In this document: positions 1,493 to 35,108 of the stretch, in pieces
Position numbering within the stretch: the first letter of the stretch is position 1
Layout of the letters: the number at the start of each line of letters is the position of its first letter
NCBI RefSeq assembly: GCF_040616545.1
Contig: NZ_CP156688.1
Span: 1,178,001-1,242,000 of the forward strand
Source of the DNA: Akkermansia muciniphila
GTDB lineage: Bacteria > Verrucomicrobiota > Verrucomicrobiia > Verrucomicrobiales > Akkermansiaceae
Length of the DNA stretch: 64,000 nucleotides
Direction of reading: 5' to 3'
Position numbers and translations under genes: made by a program
The notes under the pieces: generated by a model
The model's input: only the letters and a program-made list of their open reading frames with translations
Told to the model about the DNA's origin: nothing
The model's database searches: none

Positions 1493-2118
1493 GTTTTCGT
1501 CTCTATTAGGAGGTTACGGCGTGATGAAGATATGAATAACCAAAAATTTATACGAAAATAATAAAGTCACTTCTCTTGCATAGCTCGACGGTTGATATGT
1601 TATGTCAATGCTTTGATTGCTGGGAAATTTGCTGATAGACCGATAAGATTTCATGAATGCGGTTGCCATGCAACCAGGGAAATGATCAATCAGATTTGTC
1701 ACAATTGTATTTGTGCCGGTTGAGTTGGTTCTGATGGTCATTTCTAAATAACGGAATGTCGAATATTACCAAAAGTGTGCTCCGGCTGCGGAAAGGAGTT
1801 CGCCTATATAAGTGACGGGAAATTCCTGGCAGGATTTATATATTCCCTCTCTCGGCGATGATTTGAATGATGACCACATAGAGTCTAAAGTCCGTCTCTC
1901 TGGTGATGATGCTCAGGGTAGAGAGAGGCCTCATGACCTCGACCCATGCTGCTCACTATCAGCAAGCTGATGAGTGTCACGCTCTATTGGCAGCATTCTT
2001 TCCAGAAAAATAAGCCAAGTACCTATACGGCCGCACGCCGCCTGTTTGACAGACGGCGTGCGTATTCCAACACCTGGTTGTTAGTTATTGCTTCTTCTGT
2101 TTTATAGGAAACGGCTTA
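1493..2118. other. gene-poor AT-rich stretch with coding debris
   Basis: No convincing gene is present. A 28-codon open stretch at 1775-1861 (GTG start possible) reads like a zinc-ribbon fragment, with CSGCGKEF and then a stop, and may be the remnant of a larger gene. A 54-codon frame at 1946-2107 has no ribosome site and no recognisable content. The composition changes sharply after the GH36 stop, which suggests this is the left edge of an acquired block reaching to about 5.0 kb. Confidence 0.5.
2032..2062 (-). terminator. stem-loop downstream of the secreted-protein operon
   Basis: Nine-bp arms (CGCACGCCG and CGGCGTGCG), one mismatch, four more pairs (CTGT/ACAG) and a 3-nt loop make a strong hairpin. 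It lies about 57 bp after the stop of the last gene of the leftward operon. There is no U-run after the stem on either strand, so it may stabilise an mRNA end rather than act as an intrinsic terminator. Confidence 0.35.
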
Positions 2119-2568
2119 TCATTCAATTTTAATGATACCCTGCTTGATTAGTTTGGCCGCTTCCCGTTCTATCTCTTTTTGATGCTTTTTCATGTAGGCC
2201 TGATAGGCTTCCTCGATATCGAAGCGAATGGTTATGACCCATTCTTCGTCTTCGTTTTCCAAATCAAAGAACGAATATCGATGGCCATCCATGACATCCT
2301 GTTCTTCACCCTTTCCTTTGATGCAATAATTGGGATAATGCTTCTCCACATATTCCCGTTGCTTTTCCAGAAGTTTGTTCAGATCTTTTTCGTCGAAAAC
2401 GATAGGGTTTGTAATGACAGGGACATCCTTCTCCTCCGTATGAGCTTCACAGGAGGCTTCTTGTTGTTGTTCGTTGGGTTGGACGGTTTCTTCCTGTGCT
2501 ATAGCTAGACTGCCTATTCCTTGAAAGCAGGAGAGCACGATGATCATTATACTCAATATGTATTTCAT
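2119..2568 (-). CDS. hypothetical secreted protein, 149 aa
   Basis: I do not recognise a family. Residues 1-24 form a signal peptide (lysine, hydrophobic run, cleavage near AIAQ-E). The mature part is highly charged and mostly acidic in the first half, with one predicted helix around the lysine- and glutamate-rich region (residues 60-80), a beta-rich segment ending in WVITIRF, and a basic C-terminal helix. It is the last gene of a three-gene leftward operon, 20 bp after the preceding stop. Base composition is clearly more AT-rich than in the flanking metabolic genes. Export to the periplasm or outside is inferred; the function is unknown. Confidence 0.7.
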   Translation of the reverse strand: MKYILSIMIIVLSCFQGIGSLAIAQEETVQPNEQQQEASCEAHTEEKDVPVITNPIVFDEKDLNKLLEKQREYVEKHYPNYCIKGKGEEQDVMDGHRYSFFDLENEDEEWVITIRFDIEEAYQAYMKKHQKEIEREAAKLIKQGIIKIE

Positions 2569-2588
2569 TATTTCTTTATTCTATTGAT

Positions 2589-3107
2589 TTACTGGTGGTT
2601 TTTGCAATCTTCCTTCAATTGTTTTTCTAATTGCCTTCTAATCTGTTGCTTTCCTTCTCTGATAACACCAGGAATGTCTTTTGCTTGGTGGTAGTCCACT
2701 CCGTTCCGCATGATATTATTCTTCTGAGCGATTTGCCATGATCCAATTAGTTTCTTTTGATGAGTGAATCGATAGAGATAAATGATATGCACATTCCGGA
2801 ATACCTTATCAGTTTTCATTGCCTCAGACAATTTGAGTATTCCACTAGCATTCCCGATAGCATCGTAGATTACTTTTTCTAATACTTTTGCTGCAATTCC
2901 ATCTAATGTATTTCCCAGTGTATCCAATGTTGCCGTCGAGGCCCCATTAGAAGTCATATAAGGGAAAAATTTTATCTCATAGTCACAGTCTTTTGCTTGG
3001 ACGGGCAGAGAGGTAAACGAGCCAATGACTACTGCTATAATGTATGTGAGTAGTCTTACTATTGATTTCTTTCTCATGTCAATTTTTTTCGTGGTGTTGG
3101 AGTTCAT
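2589..3107 (-). CDS. hypothetical secreted protein, 172 aa
   Basis: No family recognised. After a basic start, residues 16-37 form the hydrophobic core of a signal peptide with a likely cut after PVQA. The mature protein has two cysteines near its ends (KDCDYE near the new N-terminus and EDCKN near the C-terminus) that could form a disulfide after export. A glycine/alanine segment sits in the middle and a basic glutamine-rich helix at the end. Its ATG overlaps the stop of the upstream gene as ATGA, so translation of the two is probably coupled. A second in-frame ATG at 3077 would give a more standard signal peptide. Confidence 0.7.
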   Translation of the reverse strand: MNSNTTKKIDMRKKSIVRLLTYIIAVVIGSFTSLPVQAKDCDYEIKFFPYMTSNGASTATLDTLGNTLDGIAAKVLEKVIYDAIGNASGILKLSEAMKTDKVFRNVHIIYLYRFTHQKKLIGSWQIAQKNNIMRNGVDYHQAKDIPGVIREGKQQIRRQLEKQLKEDCKNHQ

Positions 3108-4765
3108 TTCGTCGGAATGAAATTCTTTTTAATAAATTCTTCTCCCTCCCGGGTTAATTTCCCATCATTCCAGGTATCTAGCAGGCTTTGGTAGGCCTCT
3201 ACGTAGCGCCGTTTCGTCTGTTCTTTCCCTTCTAAGGCAATGATTGCATCTTGTAGCATCTGGACAGAGTATTTTTTCATTTTGGGTGTCCATACGGCGT
3301 GTTTTGCTTTTTGGGCCCATATGGACAAATGTTTCCCGGTGAAGCCTGGCTTGTATTCAGCTATACATTTGATTTCAAGACAGTTTGTAATGAGTCTATT
3401 CCAAGCCAGACGGTTGAAGAGTTCTTCCCCGTGAGGGGTACAATCCGGTCCGAGCACGCAAGAGTAAAGTTCATAGGGATTAACTCTGTTTTCTCGGATA
3501 TTCAACACTTTGCTTGCCACATGCCAAATGAGGTTGTGTTCGTTGGGTATGGTTTGAGCCAGCTCTTTGAGGTAGATGAGTTTTTGTCGATCATTCGCGT
3601 TTTTGGCCTTGAAGTTCAAATAACGCAGCCACGCAGGATAGTTGAAGGGATTGAATTTCCGCGCTTCCCGCAATAGCAGATCCGCATGCTCCGGTTTCTG
3701 TGTGCAGAAGGACAGATAATACGTTAAAGTCGATTCTTTCGCATTGGGATGATGAATGAATGAATCGTAAGCTGGCACCAGTTGAATGGGACCTTTCCAT
3801 GGAATTTGGGGCCCTCCATTGGCCCAGTTCCATCCGCCGATGTTATTGCCGATTTGCCAGTGGCCGTTGGGATGTTTCCACACGAAGGCGCAGTGCCCTG
3901 GTTGCCCAATCGGATAAGCGGGAACTCCTTTGGAGCGCAAGAATCCCGCCGCGCCTTTGGAAACAGCGCCGCATACGCCGCCATATTCAGTATAAAGTTT
4001 CAGGGTGATGGGCTTGTGGTCGTAAAAAGCGGCCCCAGCATGAACGCTGACACCTTTATCATTCTTTTTACGGTAGGGAATGAAGCCGGTGAATCTGCTT
4101 CCGGCTTTCTCCGGTTTGATTTTTTTCCCCTCAATGAATTGCTGTGCCCATGCGAGGTCTTCAAGGCTTTCTTTACCCCGGAATACAATGGCCCATTCCC
4201 AGGGTTGCAAGCTGTCTGCTTGTGGATAGCATCTGGCGTGGTGATGGGAATCCCGGTAGAAATTGAATTTGGCGATGCATTCCTCGGGAGAGAAGGTGTT
4301 CGCAACAAGGGCGGCTCCAAGCGCCATGCTGAGTTCAACAGAATTGAGCTTTTGATCCCTAGTATTCCAGATTTGGTAAAAAACGGAAAGGGTATTTTTG
4401 CTGGCAGGACCGGATTGGGCGAGCATTTCAAACACTTCCGGATGGCTGGAAAGCCATTCCCTGAAGTCCTGATCCTTGAGTTCCTTCTGGGTAAACGGCT
4501 TGCCATCTTCAGCAGTATTAAAAAATTGGTGCAGGTAGCACAGTGACGCTACTTGTGGAGAATGAATCAGTTCTCGTATTTTTTCAATAGTAAGCGGACC
4601 GGAGTCAAGCCGGTTGCGCAGGGCTTCCCGGGCTTTACCGGCAATGAAGGAGGAGCGTCCCTCAGAAAGTAGTGTCTGTATGTCTGATCCAGATGAAGCC
4701 AGCGCGGCAGGGCTCTCTGGCAACATAAGTATACTGAAGAGGAAAATCCAGAGGATATTCTTCAT
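3104..4765 (-). CDS. secreted protein with transglutaminase-like core, 553 aa
   Basis: First gene of the secreted trio. A signal peptide covers about residues 1-23 (cut near ALAS). Residues about 240-330 resemble a transglutaminase-like (papain-fold) core: Cys265 in GGVCGAVSKG begins a helix as the nucleophile normally does, followed by GVPAYPIGQPGH with His291 and an Asn pair at 307-308 where the third catalytic residue would lie. On this reading it could be a peptidase or amide-modifying enzyme acting outside the cytoplasm. About 160 residues before and 220 after the core are alpha-helical and possibly repeat-like. The Asp of the usual Cys-His-Asp triad is not evident, so catalysis is uncertain. 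The AT-rich composition differs from the backbone. Confidence 0.65.
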   Translation of the reverse strand: MKNILWIFLFSILMLPESPAALASSGSDIQTLLSEGRSSFIAGKAREALRNRLDSGPLTIEKIRELIHSPQVASLCYLHQFFNTAEDGKPFTQKELKDQDFREWLSSHPEVFEMLAQSGPASKNTLSVFYQIWNTRDQKLNSVELSMALGAALVANTFSPEECIAKFNFYRDSHHHARCYPQADSLQPWEWAIVFRGKESLEDLAWAQQFIEGKKIKPEKAGSRFTGFIPYRKKNDKGVSVHAGAAFYDHKPITLKLYTEYGGVCGAVSKGAAGFLRSKGVPAYPIGQPGHCAFVWKHPNGHWQIGNNIGGWNWANGGPQIPWKGPIQLVPAYDSFIHHPNAKESTLTYYLSFCTQKPEHADLLLREARKFNPFNYPAWLRYLNFKAKNANDRQKLIYLKELAQTIPNEHNLIWHVASKVLNIRENRVNPYELYSCVLGPDCTPHGEELFNRLAWNRLITNCLEIKCIAEYKPGFTGKHLSIWAQKAKHAVWTPKMKKYSVQMLQDAIIALEGKEQTKRRYVEAYQSLLDTWNDGKLTREGEEFIKKNFIPTK

Positions 4766-29983: not shown

Positions 29984-30772
29984 TTATTGGGTTTTTGTCT
30001 GAGACGGAAATACTTGCTTTATAATACTACGTAGCAGATGTTTTTTTACGTATCTTCTAAACCCAATGAATTCCTTTGTCGGATCCGAAGCATCGTCTAT
30101 AAAATTACGAATACAAGATCCCAAACTGTTTTGTTGCTCTTTTGAAGTTTTAGCTCGTGTAAGTTCTTTGGTGATTTTTCTTTTTAGAGAATCTATGATC
30201 TTTTTCCGCCTTTCAACAATGGCTGGTCTAGATAGTTGACAAATTTCGATTGTTTTTCGATAGCGAGGATTATCCGAATCTATTTCTCCATTTTTTAGGA
30301 AAACAATGAAATTTTCAGGGTCTTCTAGTTCAGGATTTATAAGAATAGGTTTTTCAAACTTGTTTAATTCTGATGAAAGATTATTAAATTTGTGGTTGAT
30401 ATTTTTCTTTTTTCTAAAGAAAGGAGGAGTGATTGATTGTGTGCCCTCTAAAGGAAAATTGTCCAGTTTTTTTTGATTGCAAACAGGGCATGCCAATAAT
30501 AAATTATCCCAACTAAATGCAAGCCAATAATATATTGATTTTGGACGATAGTGTTCTACATGAAACTGCTCTATTATCTGCTCGCAGTAGATACATTTCC
30601 CATGATGTATTGTTTTGAGCTTCTCCTTGATATCGGAGGCTCTGTAGCATTTATTATAATTTTCTGTAGGGATATATTTTTTTTGATTGATGAGTTCCTG
30701 CCGTTTTTGGTGTGTTTCTTCTGAAAGAAGAGAGGGAGGAATATCATTTAAGTCTTTATTGATTTTGATCAT
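29984..30772 (-). CDS. HNH endonuclease, Septu PtuB-like
   Basis: 262 aa. Zinc-stabilised HNH fold: Cys60/Cys63 (CIYC) and Cys95/Cys98 (CPVC) frame HVEHYRPKS (His71, His74) and WDNLLLAC, which supply the catalytic histidine and the metal site. This is the layout of PtuB in the Septu defence system and of HNH partners found with ABC-type ATPases in some retrons. The C-terminal third is basic and helical, presumably DNA-binding. Its start overlaps the end of the ATPase gene by 17 bp, indicating translational coupling. AT-rich like its partners. Nuclease action and target (phage or host DNA, or tRNA) are inferred only. Confidence 0.85.
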   Translation of the reverse strand: MIKINKDLNDIPPSLLSEETHQKRQELINQKKYIPTENYNKCYRASDIKEKLKTIHHGKCIYCEQIIEQFHVEHYRPKSIYYWLAFSWDNLLLACPVCNQKKLDNFPLEGTQSITPPFFRKKKNINHKFNNLSSELNKFEKPILINPELEDPENFIVFLKNGEIDSDNPRYRKTIEICQLSRPAIVERRKKIIDSLKRKITKELTRAKTSKEQQNSLGSCIRNFIDDASDPTKEFIGFRRYVKKHLLRSIIKQVFPSQTKTQ

Positions 30773-32558
30773 CTTCTTTTAAGATTTTGTCAATCAATAT
30801 GTCTATGTCATTATCAGTGAGGAATTTTTTTCCTTGCCGATATTGTTCCTGTAATAATTTTTCCAGTTTTAGCTCAAGTCGATACTGAGCGTATGTACTT
30901 GCTGTCGTATAATTGTCCGTTTTTGGTTCCATCCGAGCACTCTCCAATCCAAACATGGGGGATGTGGCAAGAGTATTGATCATGAGATGATTGAGGTTTT
31001 TACGAAGGTAAGGCTCACTCAGTATTGTTTGCCCGTCTTGTCTGTATATTCTGTAAATGAGTGCTTCATCTGATGCTGCCTGAATGATCGTTGGGCTATG
31101 GGTTGTGAAAAAAAACTGGATATTAGGAAAGTGCTTTTTTAACTTTGGAACCAGTTTGAGCTGCCAGCGAGGGTGGATATGCAAGTCTATTTCATCAACA
31201 AGCACAACGCTTTTCTTATCGAAAATATTTTCTCCAGTTACTCCTTCTTCATGTACGAGTCTGTAAATCAGATCGACGATAAAGATAGTGATGCTTTTGT
31301 ATCCTTCTGATAGTTCTTGAAATCGAAGTGGATTTCCACATTCCTTGAATACAGGGGTGCGCCCATTCCATTCAATAGTTATTTGCCGTTCCAGTATGTC
31401 AGATAGTACTTTTTGCAGCTTTTCTGTTGAGATGCGGGATTGATAGATGGCATCGTATTTTTTATTGTTCGCACAATCGTTTTCTTTGTCTTTAATGTGC
31501 TGCAACCAGTCCTCAGGAGAAGTTAGACAGATGTCATTGCTAAAGAGGGTCATGAATCCTTGGCGATCAGCATTCGTGCTGTCTGTTCTGGCTCTCTGCG
31601 CCCCATAGGCATAAACGCTTGGTAAATAATTTTTTCCTTTTGTTGAATAGATTGTTCCGCATTCATCAATGCCCGATGCCTCAAAGGAGGGTTTTTTTCT
31701 AAAGATATCAAGAACAGAAGAGAACTTTTCTTGGGCTTGTTGTTGGTCAAGATGTCCTTTTCGAAATGCTAAATAGAGAGCCATAAGCATGAGTGTTTTG
31801 CCATCACCATTTTCGCCCAGGAAGTAAATTTCCTTTGTTTTTGGAAAGTTGATTGAAATGTTCTTAAATGTGAAAAATTCACTAATACTTAAGCCTTGAA
31901 TGTAATGTCCACGTTTTGTTCCATTGAGCCACGTTTGAAAGAAGCCATGTTCCACGCTGAAAGCATCGGCTATTTTATTTTCTTTGCAAATCTGAGGCAT
32001 GTTTAGTTCTATTTCTTCTGCCGTCCATCCGCTCCAGAGAAGTCGGTTTTCAATAAGTTGCTTAAATAGAGGGCCCAGCTCAGGGTTTTGAAATACGACG
32101 GAAAAGTCATATGGTACTTCCGTTTTTCGCCGATATTCTGTGGAAGATGCACCAGATTCGACCAGTGCACTGCGAACATTTGTTTGTTCTTTGTAATTAA
32201 GCATTTTGTTTTTTTCTTCATCGCATATAAAAATGCCTTTCATATCTGATAATGAAGAAGCACAGAGTTCAGCAAATGTCTTTAAAATTTTATGATGAGT
32301 CATAATCAATGCCATCATGCCGAATATCATTTTTTCTTGAGGGTAGTTATAGAGTTGGTCCCAGAAGTCGGGTATTTCATCATTTATATTCTTGATGCCC
32401 AGGAAGCTTTTCAAATTGGGTTGATTAATTGTTATTCCTTCTTTGCCATCAATATAAGCATCTCGGATATCTTTACTTTTGATGATGTCGAGTACTTGGA
32501 CGATGGAGTATTTCGTCCAGGATGTTTTGAGATTTTTTAAGCTGGGTAATGGGACCAT
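30756..32558 (-). CDS. Septu PtuA-like ABC-type ATPase, 600 aa
   Basis: ATPase of the SMC/ABC type used as sensor in Septu-like defence. Walker A FLGENGDGKT (about 248-255), a signature-like LSEGYKS (416-422), Walker B SVVLVDEIDLHIHP (450 on) and the H-loop TTHSP (485-489) are all present. About 230 residues come before the ATPase core and match nothing I know, making the protein larger than a plain core. The coiled-coil span between Walker A and the signature is shortened. It starts 9 bp after the methyltransferase gene and overlaps the HNH gene, so the three should be made together. Confidence 0.85.
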   Translation of the reverse strand: MVPLPSLKNLKTSWTKYSIVQVLDIIKSKDIRDAYIDGKEGITINQPNLKSFLGIKNINDEIPDFWDQLYNYPQEKMIFGMMALIMTHHKILKTFAELCASSLSDMKGIFICDEEKNKMLNYKEQTNVRSALVESGASSTEYRRKTEVPYDFSVVFQNPELGPLFKQLIENRLLWSGWTAEEIELNMPQICKENKIADAFSVEHGFFQTWLNGTKRGHYIQGLSISEFFTFKNISINFPKTKEIYFLGENGDGKTLMLMALYLAFRKGHLDQQQAQEKFSSVLDIFRKKPSFEASGIDECGTIYSTKGKNYLPSVYAYGAQRARTDSTNADRQGFMTLFSNDICLTSPEDWLQHIKDKENDCANNKKYDAIYQSRISTEKLQKVLSDILERQITIEWNGRTPVFKECGNPLRFQELSEGYKSITIFIVDLIYRLVHEEGVTGENIFDKKSVVLVDEIDLHIHPRWQLKLVPKLKKHFPNIQFFFTTHSPTIIQAASDEALIYRIYRQDGQTILSEPYLRKNLNHLMINTLATSPMFGLESARMEPKTDNYTTASTYAQYRLELKLEKLLQEQYRQGKKFLTDNDIDILIDKILKEDDQNQ

Positions 32559-32567
32559 GAGAATATA

Positions 32568-33740
32568 TCAGTTTAAAGTGAAGGCGAGAATGTATTCTTT
32601 GACGTAGGAACCGTATGTGTCAGTGCTCCCCATTCTGCTGTGAAGATGTTTCATGTCAAATAATGTTTGCTGGTATTCTTTTCCCAAGGTTTCATAAGCG
32701 ATTTTCTTCAATTCTGTAATGGAAATCATACCGCTGTCGCTATAGCTGAGAAAGAGATAGGCTTTTCTTTCTTTGATGTTGAGAAAAAGATCTTTAAATG
32801 CTTGGTGAACCTGTTTTTTGATACAGAAGGGAGATTGATGTCTGTCACTACGGTATCTCCCCTTATAACGGATGTCTGGGTAGTCATATTTGACGAGCGT
32901 TTCTATGGCATGGTAAAATCTGGAATAATGTACAGCACTGTAGGGCGGGTCTGCATAGACGATGCTATTTGGTTCCACTATTTTAAGACAATCCAGATAG
33001 TTTAGACTGGTGGTATAAGGATTATGTCGCGGATCGGTATCAATGGTCATCAGAAGTTCCTGGAATTTTTTCTCAAATAACGGCCAGATTTGCTTTGTCC
33101 TGTAGATGAGAATGTCTTGCATGTTTGCTGCAGTGATATCTCGATATTGTGCGAAATGGCCAGTTCCTTGAGAAGTATAGGACATGGCGTAGATGAGTGC
33201 TGAGAGGATTGCCCCGTAGATAAGAGTGTTACGGTAAGACTCGGCCACGGCACGAATGGAGTCAATCCAGAGGCATTGTTCGTAACTCCAGTATGTTCCT
33301 GAATAGTATTTTGTAAAGAGATGAAACCCTGTATGGAAATCTTTATTGATCAACGATCTTTGTATTTCTTCAAATGATTGAAGTTCTGATAGCTTTGAGA
33401 TATTGGCGTAGTCAGCAATCAGGTCAGGCATGTAATTTTTTGACTCATTCGTATAGGTAATGGCTGCCTCGTGGATACGTTCCGTGATGTTTGGTGGAGC
33501 TGCTGTTTTCAAGTTATACAGGTATGCGTGAGCAAAAACAGATGAGTAGGCTTGAATGTCGTTGATGTGAACACGGTATTCATGTTTGAATGACGATCCC
33601 ACTATGGATGTTCCTGCAAACAAATCACAGAAATAGTTACTTTCAACTCCTGTTGCTTTGATCGCCCGAATAACGAAAGGTAGAATTTCCCGTTTAGAGC
33701 CCATATATTTCAGGATGTGCGGGAGTGTAGGTATGTTCAT
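32568..33740 (-). CDS. D12-class DNA adenine N6-methyltransferase
   Basis: S-adenosylmethionine-dependent DNA methylase. Residues 8-20 (HILKYMGSKREIL) and CDLFAGTSIVG form the cofactor site; the catalytic motif is DPPYS (264-268), with a long inserted helical region (about 80-240) before it where target recognition would lie. 390 aa is longer than Dam-type enzymes. It is the second gene of the operon, 18 bp after the repressor and 9 bp before the ATPase. A methylase inside a Septu-like cassette suggests that self-DNA is marked so that the ATPase-HNH pair ignores it. Confidence 0.87.
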   Translation of the reverse strand: MNIPTLPHILKYMGSKREILPFVIRAIKATGVESNYFCDLFAGTSIVGSSFKHEYRVHINDIQAYSSVFAHAYLYNLKTAAPPNITERIHEAAITYTNESKNYMPDLIADYANISKLSELQSFEEIQRSLINKDFHTGFHLFTKYYSGTYWSYEQCLWIDSIRAVAESYRNTLIYGAILSALIYAMSYTSQGTGHFAQYRDITAANMQDILIYRTKQIWPLFEKKFQELLMTIDTDPRHNPYTTSLNYLDCLKIVEPNSIVYADPPYSAVHYSRFYHAIETLVKYDYPDIRYKGRYRSDRHQSPFCIKKQVHQAFKDLFLNIKERKAYLFLSYSDSGMISITELKKIAYETLGKEYQQTLFDMKHLHSRMGSTDTYGSYVKEYILAFTLN

Positions 33741-33758
33741 GCTTGGAGTTGCTTGACT

Positions 33759-34556
33759 TTATGCCTTGGTGTAGGTGTTGATGGTTTCGATGTAAATGGC
33801 TGAAATTTTTCCTCCATCCATTGGTTTGATATCGCCGAATGTCGGGTTAAGCGGATGCAGTACATAGTTTATCTTGCCCGTTTCCGGATCTTTATGACGG
33901 GCAAGCTTTTTCAGGGTGACGCCACGTTCGTCATTGTATTCCACGATGGTGCCCACTTTGGGAATGGGGGGACTGGCGTGCTTGCGCATAATGACCACGG
34001 AGCCGTCCGCAATAACCGGTTCCATGGAATGCCCGTTCACGCGCAGAAGATATTCTCCTTTCTTCAAGGGGCGGTATAGGTGGATGTCTTGCGGGATTAT
34101 GTCTCCGGCTTCCAACACACCAGCTGTGATGTTACCGATGATTTGTGCCGTATAGTACATGGAGGATGTGATGGCAGGAAGTTTTTCAATGGTCTCAGAA
34201 GAAGAGAACCAAAATTTCATTCCTTCCGTCATTTTTAAAACGAATTCTTCCGCAAGCTCCTGAACACTTTTATCTGGATGCAGTTTTTGATATTCTTGAA
34301 TAATGACCCATTCTGCTTTTGAGAATTGAAGGGTGATGGTTTCTACGCGCAGGAAACCGCGCCCATTTTCCTGCTCTTCGCGATCCATCAGTTTTTGGAT
34401 AATGAGAATGGCTTTGGAAGGGATTGTCCCAGCATCAGATAACCATGTGTCAACAGTTCGTTTCGACGCTCCCCCACATTGTAATCCGAGCCATGCTCGG
34501 TCTTTTCTCATCATTTTTAGCCAGTCCTTAATTTCTTTCTTACTTGGCGACGTCAT
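33759..34556 (-). CDS. S24-family autoproteolytic repressor (LexA/CI-like)
   Basis: 265 aa. N-terminal helix-turn-helix region (about 5-55; SKRTVDTWLSDAGTIPSKA), a linker, then an S24 peptidase domain. Ser177 lies in NGHSMEP and the general-base Lys in GVTLKKL (Lys216/217). The likely self-cleavage site is Ala145-Gly146 in ITAGVLEAGD, in the same register as LexA Ala-Gly. Such repressors cut themselves when RecA filaments form on damaged DNA. It heads the methylase-ATPase-HNH operon and begins inside its own operator array, so it probably represses all four genes and itself until the SOS signal appears. Confidence 0.9.
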   Translation of the reverse strand: MTSPSKKEIKDWLKMMRKDRAWLGLQCGGASKRTVDTWLSDAGTIPSKAILIIQKLMDREEQENGRGFLRVETITLQFSKAEWVIIQEYQKLHPDKSVQELAEEFVLKMTEGMKFWFSSSETIEKLPAITSSMYYTAQIIGNITAGVLEAGDIIPQDIHLYRPLKKGEYLLRVNGHSMEPVIADGSVVIMRKHASPPIPKVGTIVEYNDERGVTLKKLARHKDPETGKINYVLHPLNPTFGDIKPMDGGKISAIYIETINTYTKA

Positions 34557-34670
34557 AAATTGAATTTACGCGATTTTTGCGAAATGTCAACTATCCTGAG
34601 TAAAAATTATTCGCTAAAAGGCGAATAATTGGTTGTTCCACTCGCGGAAATCGCGAAAATTCAATTTATG
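34554..34670. promoter_or_regulatory. mirror-symmetric operator region between repressor gene and divergent frame
   Basis: Two 29-bp arms (34554-34582 and 34642-34670) are inverted copies of each other with 26 of 29 positions identical; each ends on an ATG, one for the repressor (minus) and one for the rightward frame (plus). Each arm holds a dyad: TACGC-N7-GCGAA (34567-34583) and CTCGC-N7-GCGAA (34641-34657). Midway is a perfect palindrome AATTATTCGC-N6-GCGAATAATT (34605-34630). Three related sites fit three binding sites for the S24 repressor, as in lambda-like switches. Seen directly; repressor binding is inferred. Confidence 0.8.
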
Positions 34671-35108
34671 CAGAAAAGAGCGACATTCAATCAAAGTGGC
34701 CGTCGGGCCCTCAACCTAAGTAAGTTTTTTTCGTATTTTACTTTGGTCTCCATCAATAAAAGCCGAGAAGAAGTGCGCCTGCTGGACAGCTTTTATCTAG
34801 CCAAGGGACTGAAAAGGCCGGATATTTTTCTGAAGATTCTGGATGGAGAATCCAGGAAAATGACTTATTACTGGGTGCGCTACCGTTTTGAGTGCAATGC
34901 GGTAATAATGAGATTCGTTATGTTGAACCTGGGATTCCCTATCAGATTCCTATTCGGAATTTTACGGAGTATATCGTCTACCTTCATCCTTGGAAAGGGA
35001 GAAGAGGTATGTGATGAAAATGGCTTATTGGGACGGTTACGGAACGCCGGACCATTCGGTAGGATACGTGGCGAGAAAGGAATTTTAGACGAAATGGCTT
35101 TACGATAA
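34668..35108 (+). CDS. divergent small protein opposite the S24 repressor (possibly frame-broken)
   Basis: The ATG at 34668 is the mirror image of the repressor ATG, which supports it as a real start (a longer frame begins at 34629). No family recognised. The first 75 residues are basic and look protein-like. From about 34892 a different frame reads better: GTG 34892 to 35014 encodes 40 residues including EIRYVEPGIPYQIPIR, then TGATG leads to a 24-residue frame ending at 35088. Either one base was lost or gained and this is a decayed gene, or several tiny genes lie here. A Cro-like or antirepressor role would be expected from position, but no helix-turn-helix is visible. Confidence 0.35.
   Translation: MQKRATFNQSGRRALNLSKFFSYFTLVSINKSREEVRLLDSFYLAKGLKRPDIFLKILDGESRKMTYYWVRYRFECNAVIMRFVMLNLGFPIRFLFGILRSISSTFILGKGEEVCDENGLLGRLRNAGPFGRIRGEKGILDEMALR

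What the first reader, a model, noticed from the sequence alone, without database searches (positions are those of the whole stretch)
29984..34556. Four-gene S24 repressor-methyltransferase-ATPase-HNH operon, a probable new defence arrangement
Four leftward genes are packed with gaps of 18 and 9 bp and a 17-bp overlap: a LexA/CI-like autocleaving repressor, a D12 adenine methylase, a PtuA-like ATPase and a PtuB-like HNH nuclease. Classic Septu has only ATPase and nuclease. Adding a self-marking methylase and an SOS-type repressor suggests a damage-inducible system that tells self from invader by DNA methylation. The region is AT-rich and inserted between copA and recN. Motifs are seen directly; defence function and inducibility are inferred.
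Basis: partly seen in the sequence, partly recalled or inferred. Interest (0 to 1): 0.88.

Follow-up and report, generated by a model that had tools for sequence, protein, structure and literature searches.

The report
Septu module wired into restriction-modification
A bacterial gene cluster joins a DNA-marking enzyme to a Septu phage-defence ATPase and nuclease through a shared recognition-type domain, so Septu probably attacks only DNA that lacks the cell's own mark; an autocleaving repressor that could make it damage-inducible is a local addition.

Summary
The four genes are real, at the stated coordinates and spacings. The conserved unit is three genes, methylase-ATPase-HNH: 15 further loci in Bacteroidota, a methanotroph and one viral contig. 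No S24 relative was found in those 15; the S24 gene belongs to a repressor family of the window's own genus. The key finding is a 215-residue N-terminal domain on the PtuA-like ATPase, unnamed in Pfam. Beside the same methylase family it is also fused to a McrB-like NTPase, to a DndB-like protein and to a PD-(D/E)XK-type nuclease. Related methylases without it pair with BglII-family restriction enzymes. AlphaFold models it well (pLDDT 94.5); the best, only suggestive, match is BrxA, a DNA-binding BREX protein. The PtuA fusion arose about once, yet its methylases do not form one clade (AU p 7e-44): modules were swapped. Best reading: a restriction-modification system whose restriction engine is Septu, under an autocleaving repressor. 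What the HNH nuclease cuts, the methylated site, phage defence and SOS induction are untested.

The parts
29984..30772 (-). PtuB-like HNH nuclease, 262 aa
   Evidence: Pfam HNH 1.9e-6; PADLOC PtuB 2.8e-50; NCBIfam TIGR02646 56.7 bits, cut-off 52.15. The profile of 15 rows matches retron PtuB chains in the PDB (2.8e-11). HNH-region residues are conserved in that alignment.
30756..32558 (-). 600-aa ATPase: N-terminal recognition-type domain fused to a PtuA-like ABC ATPase
   Evidence: PADLOC PtuA 4.2e-45; AF2 model (pLDDT 77.7): the 50 Foldseek rows shown are retron or Septu PtuA chains, E 1.3e-11 to 3.2e-9, though with low TM-scores of 0.32-0.40 by query length. GENGDGK, LSEG and DEID stretches (Walker A, signature, Walker B; names recalled) are conserved in the 16-row alignment.
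31914..32558 (-). N-terminal domain of the ATPase (residues 1-215), shared with McrB-like, DndB-like and PD-(D/E)XK-type proteins next to the same methylase family
   Evidence: 26% identity to the Roseibium McrB-like protein, pair E 9e-16, z 25.8 against 1000 shuffles; 27-row alignment A4; AF2 pLDDT 94.5, pTM 0.91; BrxA-like, Z 7.5 and 6.7, under the tool's reliability mark; no Pfam match in this part.
32568..33740 (-). D12-class DNA adenine methylase, 390 aa
   Evidence: Pfam MethyltransfD12 3.5e-19; DPPY and FAG stretches; 40-47% identical over its length to plasmid methylases beside BglII-family enzymes or a McrBC-like pair.
33759..34556 (-). S24 (LexA/CI-like) repressor, 265 aa
   Evidence: Peptidase_S24 3.4e-9; Ala145-Gly146, Ser177 and Lys216 invariant in the 20-row alignment of same-genus homologues, several of them near-copies.
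34563..34590 (-). Promoter-like site TTGACA-16-TAAATT ending 6 bases before the S24 start codon, with an imperfect palindrome TTCGC..CGCG in the spacer
   Evidence: 10 of 12 matches; 17 promoter-like sites against 14.1 expected in the region, so the consensus alone is weak. A similar layout is visible by eye before several S24 homologues.
34610..34625 (.). Perfect palindrome TTCGC-N6-GCGAA upstream of S24, candidate operator
   Evidence: the only exact match in the window; with one mismatch allowed 2 found, 3.15 expected, so weak as statistics.
34642..34657 (.). Related palindrome TTCGCGATTTCCGCGA, candidate operator
   Evidence: Read directly in the sequence; no statistics.
34842..35101 (.). 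Remnant of resident sequence of the copA-recN site, not part of the system
   Evidence: 75% identical over 263 columns to DNA at the same site in G044.

Best explanation
This is a restriction-modification system whose restriction engine is a Septu (PtuA-PtuB) module. The D12 methylase marks a specific site on host DNA. The N-terminal domain of the ATPase, a portable target-recognition domain, binds that site when it is unmethylated. ATP-dependent rearrangement of the PtuA-like complex then licenses the HNH nuclease, most likely against the bound DNA. The S24 protein represses the operon from operators around its own promoter; self-cleavage after DNA damage would raise expression. Shown here: gene content, conserved three-gene unit, domain sharing, module swapping, intact catalytic and autocleavage residues, predicted folds. 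Inferred: DNA binding, methylation sensing, cleavage, repression, induction, phage defence.
For: Conserved methylase-ATPase-HNH order in 15 other loci. The same N-terminal domain is fused to three other effector types beside the same methylase family, including ~375-aa single chains with a PD-(D/E)XK-type C-terminus. Methylases without the domain pair with BglII-family enzymes (18 of 56 loci, plus 2 plasmids). Domain-first searches gave 13 distinct places, all with the methylase beside them; one of them is new (L151). The PtuA fusion is one side of a branch in the domain tree (97/97), while one clade of their methylases is rejected (p-AU 7e-44): partners were swapped, which is safe only if the site is shared. 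BrxA-like fold, suggestive; BrxA shifts DNA in gels and resembles the BpuJI and FokI recognition domains (PMC9240713 passages and section 3.3 part 1). In LlaJI the McrB-like subunit alone sets specificity (PMC1459862 abstract). S24 residues intact.
Against: No activity was measured. The BrxA match is below Z 8, and the tool's note puts the mark nearer 13 for mostly helical models, which this is; Foldseek alone found nothing significant (BrxA at E 1.4). Septu EcB88 and retron-Eco7 cleave tRNA-Tyr (PMC13096335 abstract and section 8), so the engine may not be a DNase. Eight loci join the domain to a DndB-like protein; of the three scanned with Pfam, two show no nuclease and one a sub-threshold Hjc-like stretch, so the domain may not always feed a cut. 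No S24 in the relatives. Most loci were found through the methylase, so co-occurrence is partly by construction; only one domain-first locus is new. Methylase conservation does not single out a target-facing part.
Confidence: 0.66

Rival explanations
1. Methylation-gated abortive system: the N-terminal domain senses unmethylated sites, but the released HNH nuclease cuts tRNA, stopping the cell rather than cutting the invader, comparable in logic to anticodon nucleases tied to restriction enzymes (PrrC, recalled).
For: Closest solved relatives of ATPase and HNH are retron Ec78/Eco7 and Septu PtuAB. Septu EcB88 cleaves tRNA-Tyr in the variable loop during T6 infection, and retron-Eco7 does likewise (PMC13096335 section 8).
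Against: Sister effectors with BglII-family or PD-(D/E)XK-type nucleases are of DNA-cutting kinds (the kind is family knowledge). No sequence test here tells DNase from tRNase.
Confidence: 0.24
2. Septu defence that happens to share an operon with a solitary methylase; the methylase serves regulation or anti-restriction and does not gate PtuAB.
For: PtuA and PtuB cores match PADLOC models well, and classic Septu works without a methylase (recalled).
Against: 15 other loci keep methylase and domain-PtuA together, 14 of them with PtuB in view; all 13 places of the domain-first searches have the methylase as neighbour; ordinary PtuA matches in 31 other genomes of the phylum start at query residue 328 or later.
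Confidence: 0.07
3. The S24 gene is the maintenance repressor of a decayed prophage or element that happens to lie next to an R-M operon, and does not control it.
For: S24 homologues occur in prophage-like surroundings (L120, L121, beside an integrase-like ORF judged by eye); no S24 in the 15 related loci; its GC (46%) differs from the other three genes (33-41%).
Against: Only 18 bp separate S24 and methylase; homologues stand 65 and 76 bp before other defence-type genes (L107 truncated C5 methylase, L108 PDC-M19 pair).
Confidence: 0.25

Closest known systems
Septu (PtuA-PtuB) and retron Ec78/Eco7 PtuAB
   Same: PtuA-like ABC ATPase followed by an overlapping PtuB-like HNH gene; top PADLOC, Foldseek and PDB sequence matches.
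   Different: Extra N-terminal domain, constant methylase neighbour, no reverse transcriptase found; NCBIfam retron PtuA/PtuB cut-offs not reached. PADLOC's Septu type II adds a reverse transcriptase, not a methylase (PMC8565338 passages).
LlaJI-type R-M (methylases plus McrB-like specificity subunit plus PD-(D/E)XK subunit)
   Same: Methylase next to a two-gene NTPase-nuclease restriction module, with the recognition part on the NTPase; the Roseibium relative has such a pair with the same N-terminal domain.
   Different: Motor is a PtuA-like ABC ATPase, not McrB-like; nuclease is HNH, not PD-(D/E)XK; one D12 adenine methylase instead of two m5C methylases.
Type II R-M with BglII/BstYI-family endonuclease
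   Same: Same methylase family, 41-47% identical.
   Different: Single small endonuclease without ATPase or shared domain.
BREX (BrxA), DndG, SspB and FokI multi-HTH recognition modules
   Same: Predicted fold of the N-terminal domain: Z 7.5 and 6.7 to two BrxA-family structures; the likeness of BrxA, SspB and FokI, and of DndG, SspB and FokI, is from papers.
   Different: No significant sequence match to solved structures (best E 0.18, ComA); the four proteins match no other BREX component.
Hma (helicase, m5C methylase, ATPase), often near Septu
   Same: A methylase system found near Septu (PMC8565338 passages).
   Different: Separate three-gene operon; here the methylase is D12 and the ATPase is the PtuA itself.

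Membership tests
Septu | PtuA-like ABC ATPase core with intact nucleotide-binding motifs | tested here: met
Septu | PtuB-like HNH gene directly downstream | tested here: met
   17-bp overlap; PtuB 2.8e-50.
Septu | Stand-alone two-gene operon without methylase or extra recognition domain | tested here: not met
   Methylase 9 bp upstream and residues 1-215 extra.
Retron type I-A (Septu type II) | Reverse transcriptase gene with the PtuAB pair | tested here: not met
   The four proteins match no RT family in Pfam, NCBIfam, PADLOC or PHROGs lists (the PADLOC lists for ATPase and HNH show 25 of 107 and 25 of 78 families). Outside the four genes the longest ORF between copA and recN is 159 aa, without an RT match.
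Restriction-modification system | DNA methylase with catalytic motif next to a dedicated restriction component | tested here: met
   DPPY motif; linkage conserved in 15 other loci. That the component restricts is inferred.
Restriction-modification system | Methylase and restriction part recognise the same site; methylation blocks restriction | not testable with these tools
   Only indirect: partner swapping.
LlaJI/McrBC-type | McrB-like AAA+ NTPase and McrC-like (DUF2357) partner | tested here: not met
   Window ATPase matches AAA_21/AAA_15 and PtuA; no DUF2357 among its four proteins.
BrxA fold | BrxA-like double helix-turn-helix fold of the N-terminal domain | tested here: inconclusive
   Z 7.5 over 155 residues, rmsd 4.0, and Z 6.7; next row 3.0; both under 8. 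Foldseek E 1.4.
S24/LexA-type autocleaving repressor | Cleavage dipeptide plus Ser-Lys dyad (roles recalled) | tested here: met
   A145-G146, S177, K216 invariant in 20 rows.
S24/LexA-type autocleaving repressor | RecA-dependent self-cleavage and induction | not testable with these tools
   Needs experiment.

The most novel reading that the evidence does not exclude
One portable BrxA-like recognition domain, tied to one methylase specificity, has been plugged into at least four different effectors (Septu PtuAB, McrBC, a DndB-like protein, a PD-(D/E)XK-type nuclease). In the window it converts Septu from a generic infection sensor into a methylation-gated one that may kill by tRNA cleavage: a restriction-modification system whose output is not DNA cutting, wired locally to an SOS-type repressor.
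Probability: 0.22. Interest if true: 0.9.

Novelty: new variant of a known kind. Interest (0 to 1): 0.77.

Why it matters
What switches Septu on is not settled (author's knowledge). Here the likely trigger can be read from the gene: a domain shared with restriction-type proteins, with its cognate methylase as the off switch. That makes PtuAB activation testable with one variable, methylated versus unmethylated DNA. The swapping of effectors around one methylase family also suggests how new restriction systems arise without changing specificity. PADLOC's protein models see here PtuA, PtuB (and the related retron I-A partners) and generic Type II methylases, not the link (its system caller was not run).

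Tried and rejected
Rejected: a conserved four-gene system (no S24 found in the 15 relatives); a lineage trait of the genus (ATPase in 1 of 76 genus genomes at 1e-40, methylase in 1 of 76 at 1e-25, both the window itself); a retron (no RT found). A site assignment to AGATCT/RGATCY from the BglII-family neighbours was considered and not claimed: the enzyme of L002, though Pfam Endonuc-BglII at 5.1e-40, matched no solved chain at E 0.01. Using methylase conservation as proof of a shared site was also dropped: every segment tested is about as alike between effector classes as within them, and which segments touch the target was not tested.

Led nowhere: ATPase order-level search at 1e-25 (1 of 288, the window itself); viral scan with the single ATPase; domain search in phages (none); PDB search with the methylase alignment (none at 0.001); plasmid PtuA-like neighbours L005-L007. 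The Foldseek 'viral' library was not used. BpuJI, FokI and SspB are not in the VIA list; that list covers only Foldseek's 794 best chains, so nothing follows.

Literature: the listings show no title or abstract start on a methylase-linked Septu; only open-licence papers are held, the lists are capped and most listed papers were not read. A 2020 ABC-ATPase survey that may touch on such systems (identifier recalled) is not held, so an earlier mention cannot be excluded.

Rows dropped: of 56 loci were not assigned an effector (L069, L083, L084, L085, L087, L089, L092, L093: fragments, distant matches or no effector recognised). L060 is cut by its contig end and was labelled DndB-like from its visible part by eye. 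The tree has 54 rows (short methylases, L084 and L093 out); one search leaves out L069 as well; one search leaves out L088, L091, L069, L089 and L062. One search holds those five and also splits the PtuAB rows. L150 is the same locus as L082.
Full report
OBSERVATION. The four leftward ORFs are present at the stated coordinates with gaps of 18 and 9 bp and a 17-bp overlap. Pfam, PADLOC, NCBIfam and PHROGs support HNH/PtuB, PtuA-like ATPase, D12 methylase and S24 peptidase (PADLOC has nothing for S24). GC is 33% (HNH), 38.5% (ATPase), 41% (methylase) and 46% (S24) against 62-64% in copA and recN. The site was read in ten of the twelve related genomes matched. In the genome of the same species (G009) the aligned copA and recN flanks are 25 bp apart where the window has about 5.6 kb; nine of the ten have 60 bp or less there and one (G044) has about 2.3 kb of other cargo. 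So this is an insertion at a variable site. The genus is probably Akkermansia; that is recalled, no call names it.

THE EXTRA DOMAIN. The best-scoring stretches of the 25 PADLOC families shown for the ATPase (of 107) all start at residue 216 or later. By eye, residues 1-215 resembled the start of a McrB-like protein encoded after the third-listed plasmid methylase (Roseibium, L004). BLASTP of that pair gives 26% identity, E 9e-16 for the single pair; a Smith-Waterman score of 164 stands against a mean of 32.9 and a maximum of 56 in 1000 shuffles. Pfam names nothing in this part of either protein.

CENSUS. Scans of genome contigs (84,980 species genomes) and IMG/VR with peptide patterns from a four-row methylase alignment (A1) gave 50 plus 6 loci; as only pattern-matching stretches are seen, these are not frequencies. 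ORFs of 60 aa or more were compared with the window and plasmid proteins. Of the 56 loci: 15 have methylase and domain-PtuA, 14 of them with PtuB in view (L061 reaches its contig end about 100 bases after the ATPase); 4 have the domain on a McrB-like protein with a McrC-like partner (Roseibium, Pfam DUF2357 and PDDEXK_7, makes a fifth); 8 have it on a ~720-980-aa DndB-like protein (one, L060, partial); 3 on a ~375-aa chain with a PD-(D/E)XK-type C-terminus (Pfam PDDEXK_9 only for L055, 0.0023 and below its cut-off; the other two resemble it by eye); 18 have a BglII-family enzyme and no domain match (two plasmids make 20); 8 could not be assigned. Of the 8 DndB-like proteins three were scanned with Pfam: L038 and L062 reach DndB, L049 reaches nothing; L062 also has a sub-threshold Hjc-like stretch. 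A small HTH gene lies upstream of the methylase in three of the 15 PtuAB-type loci (L054 by match, L059 and L088 by eye).

IS THE LINK MORE THAN CONSTRUCTION? Searches that start from the domain, not the methylase: 9 of 11 genomes behind known loci, the two misses being the two BglII-type genomes included; 2 of 395 genomes of one class, the centre and L082's locus again; 1 of 318 of the window's phylum, the window itself; 2 of 339 of one family, the centre and a new one; 1 plasmid record of 72,556 with each of three domain queries, the known Roseibium one; no phage. These are 13 distinct places, all with the methylase beside them; only one, L151 (methylase, domain-McrB-like, then a 562-aa ORF without Pfam match), is new. 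Ordinary PtuA matches in the phylum (31 other genomes of 387 at E 1e-12) start at query residue 328 or later.

SWAPPING. In a tree of the domain (32 rows) the 16 PtuA fusions are one side of a branch (97/97), which fits one fusion event. In the methylase tree the PtuAB-paired rows are split: starred branches force at least five changes, and holding them as one clade is rejected (lnL 350.6 lower, p-AU 7e-44; 49 rows; the 54-row quick tree agrees). For example the PtuAB methylase L039 is sister to the DndB-like L038, and the PD-(D/E)XK-paired L055 to the BglII-paired L063. Methylases and restriction-type modules have thus changed partners, which is viable only if the site is shared (inference). 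Methylase segments 138-215 and 256-312 are 0.52-0.65 and 0.69-0.78 identical between effector classes and 0.61-0.67 and 0.73-0.79 within them; but all segments behave alike, so this does not by itself point to target recognition. The window methylase departs from two near-invariant columns (N247, S372).

FOLD. AlphaFold gives the domain pLDDT 94.5 and pTM 0.91 on 27 rows. Foldseek finds nothing significant. VIA-align puts two BrxA-family structures first (7zge Z 7.5, 3bhw Z 6.7) with the next row at 3.0. This is suggestive only: the tool's note treats Z under 8, or under about 13 for helical bundles, as possibly a common arrangement. The BrxA paper shows gel shifts with lambda DNA and compares BrxA with SspB and the recognition domains of BpuJI and FokI (PMC9240713, passages and section 3.3 part 1); a 2026 BREX survey calls BrxA a DNA-binding multi-HTH component (PMC12839542, abstract and passages), and a 2024 survey finds a triple-wHTH module in DndG, FokI and SspB (PMC10853773 passages). 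The whole ATPase model (pLDDT 77.7) has retron and Septu PtuA chains as best matches, with low TM-scores; the HNH profile matches retron PtuB.

REGULATOR. The S24 family is in 19 of 76 genomes of the genus at 1e-6, the window's own included, which has five matches with itself. In 20 stretches read, homologues stand before a truncated C5 methylase (L107), the PADLOC candidate pair PDC-M19A/B with a TIR gene further on (L108), an SNase protein (L106) and DUF5131 (L120, L121); in five an acyltransferase-like ORF follows (Pfam-checked in L118 alone), and the others show no defence gene that I recognised. The cleavage dipeptide and Ser-Lys dyad are invariant in the 20-row alignment, which holds near-copies. 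A -35/-10 pair ends 6 bases before the S24 start codon with a palindrome in its spacer, and two related palindromes lie upstream; the statistics of these sites alone are weak. So the repressor is a local cap, plausibly autoregulated and damage-sensitive.

MECHANISM. By analogy with LlaJI, where the McrB-like subunit alone sets specificity (PMC1459862 abstract), the domain should carry PtuAB to unmethylated sites. What the HNH then cuts is open: Septu EcB88 cleaves tRNA-Tyr (PMC13096335 abstract and section 8), while the sister effectors include DNA-cutting nuclease families. I put DNA cleavage first and tRNA cleavage second.

NOVELTY. PADLOC's Septu type II adds a reverse transcriptase, and its methylase-containing Hma operon is a separate system (PMC8565338 passages). 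The CoCoNuT survey of McrBC has no 'Septu' or 'HNH' in its main text (PMC11090510, term counts and passages). The BREX survey has no 'Septu' or 'PtuA', but mentions HNH genes linked to OLD-type ABC ATPases and earlier reports of ABC-ATPase-anchored R-M-like systems (PMC12839542); those earlier papers were not available, so a prior sighting of part of this is possible. I rate it a new variant of a known kind.

Noticed in passing
L038, L049, L060, L062, L064, L068, L081, L082: Same methylase family followed by the N-terminal domain fused to a DndB-like (DGQHR) protein, without a nuclease that I recognised except a weak Hjc-like stretch in L062: a possible further R-M-like system of unknown output.
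   Followed up: partly
L055:4474-5592, L078:7197-8324, L080:7188-8324: The domain fused to a PD-(D/E)XK-type C-terminus in a single ~375-aa chain beside the methylase: looks like a compact Type II restriction enzyme (no PADLOC match for L055 and L080).
   Followed up: partly
L106-L125 (S24 homologues in the window's genus): A family of S24 repressors of the window's genus stands before varied cargo, including PDC-M19A/B plus a TIR gene (L108) and a truncated C5 methylase (L107): a possible shared inducible cap for accessory genes.
   Followed up: partly
L041:9879-12063, L053:9879-12054, L054:9888-12063: In three PtuAB-type loci a conserved pair follows PtuB: a ~507-aa GHKL-type ATPase (L053: HATPase_c_3 1.9e-15, weak MzaB match 2.5e-6) and a 220-aa protein, possibly an extra layer.
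   Followed up: no
L056:9785-12133, L058:3471-5822: A ~782-aa protein beside two PtuAB-type systems; the L058 copy matches DpdB of the Dpd system (2.1e-28).
   Followed up: no
L005:3341-6233 (Klebsiella plasmid): A PtuA-like ATPase whose N-terminus looks by eye like a second PtuB-type HNH domain, followed by a separate PtuB-like ORF.
   Followed up: no
L142 (G044), ~1577-3906; window 34842-35101: The copA-recN gap is a variable site: G044 carries different small genes there, and the window keeps a decayed ~260-bp remnant similar to DNA of that site.
   Followed up: partly
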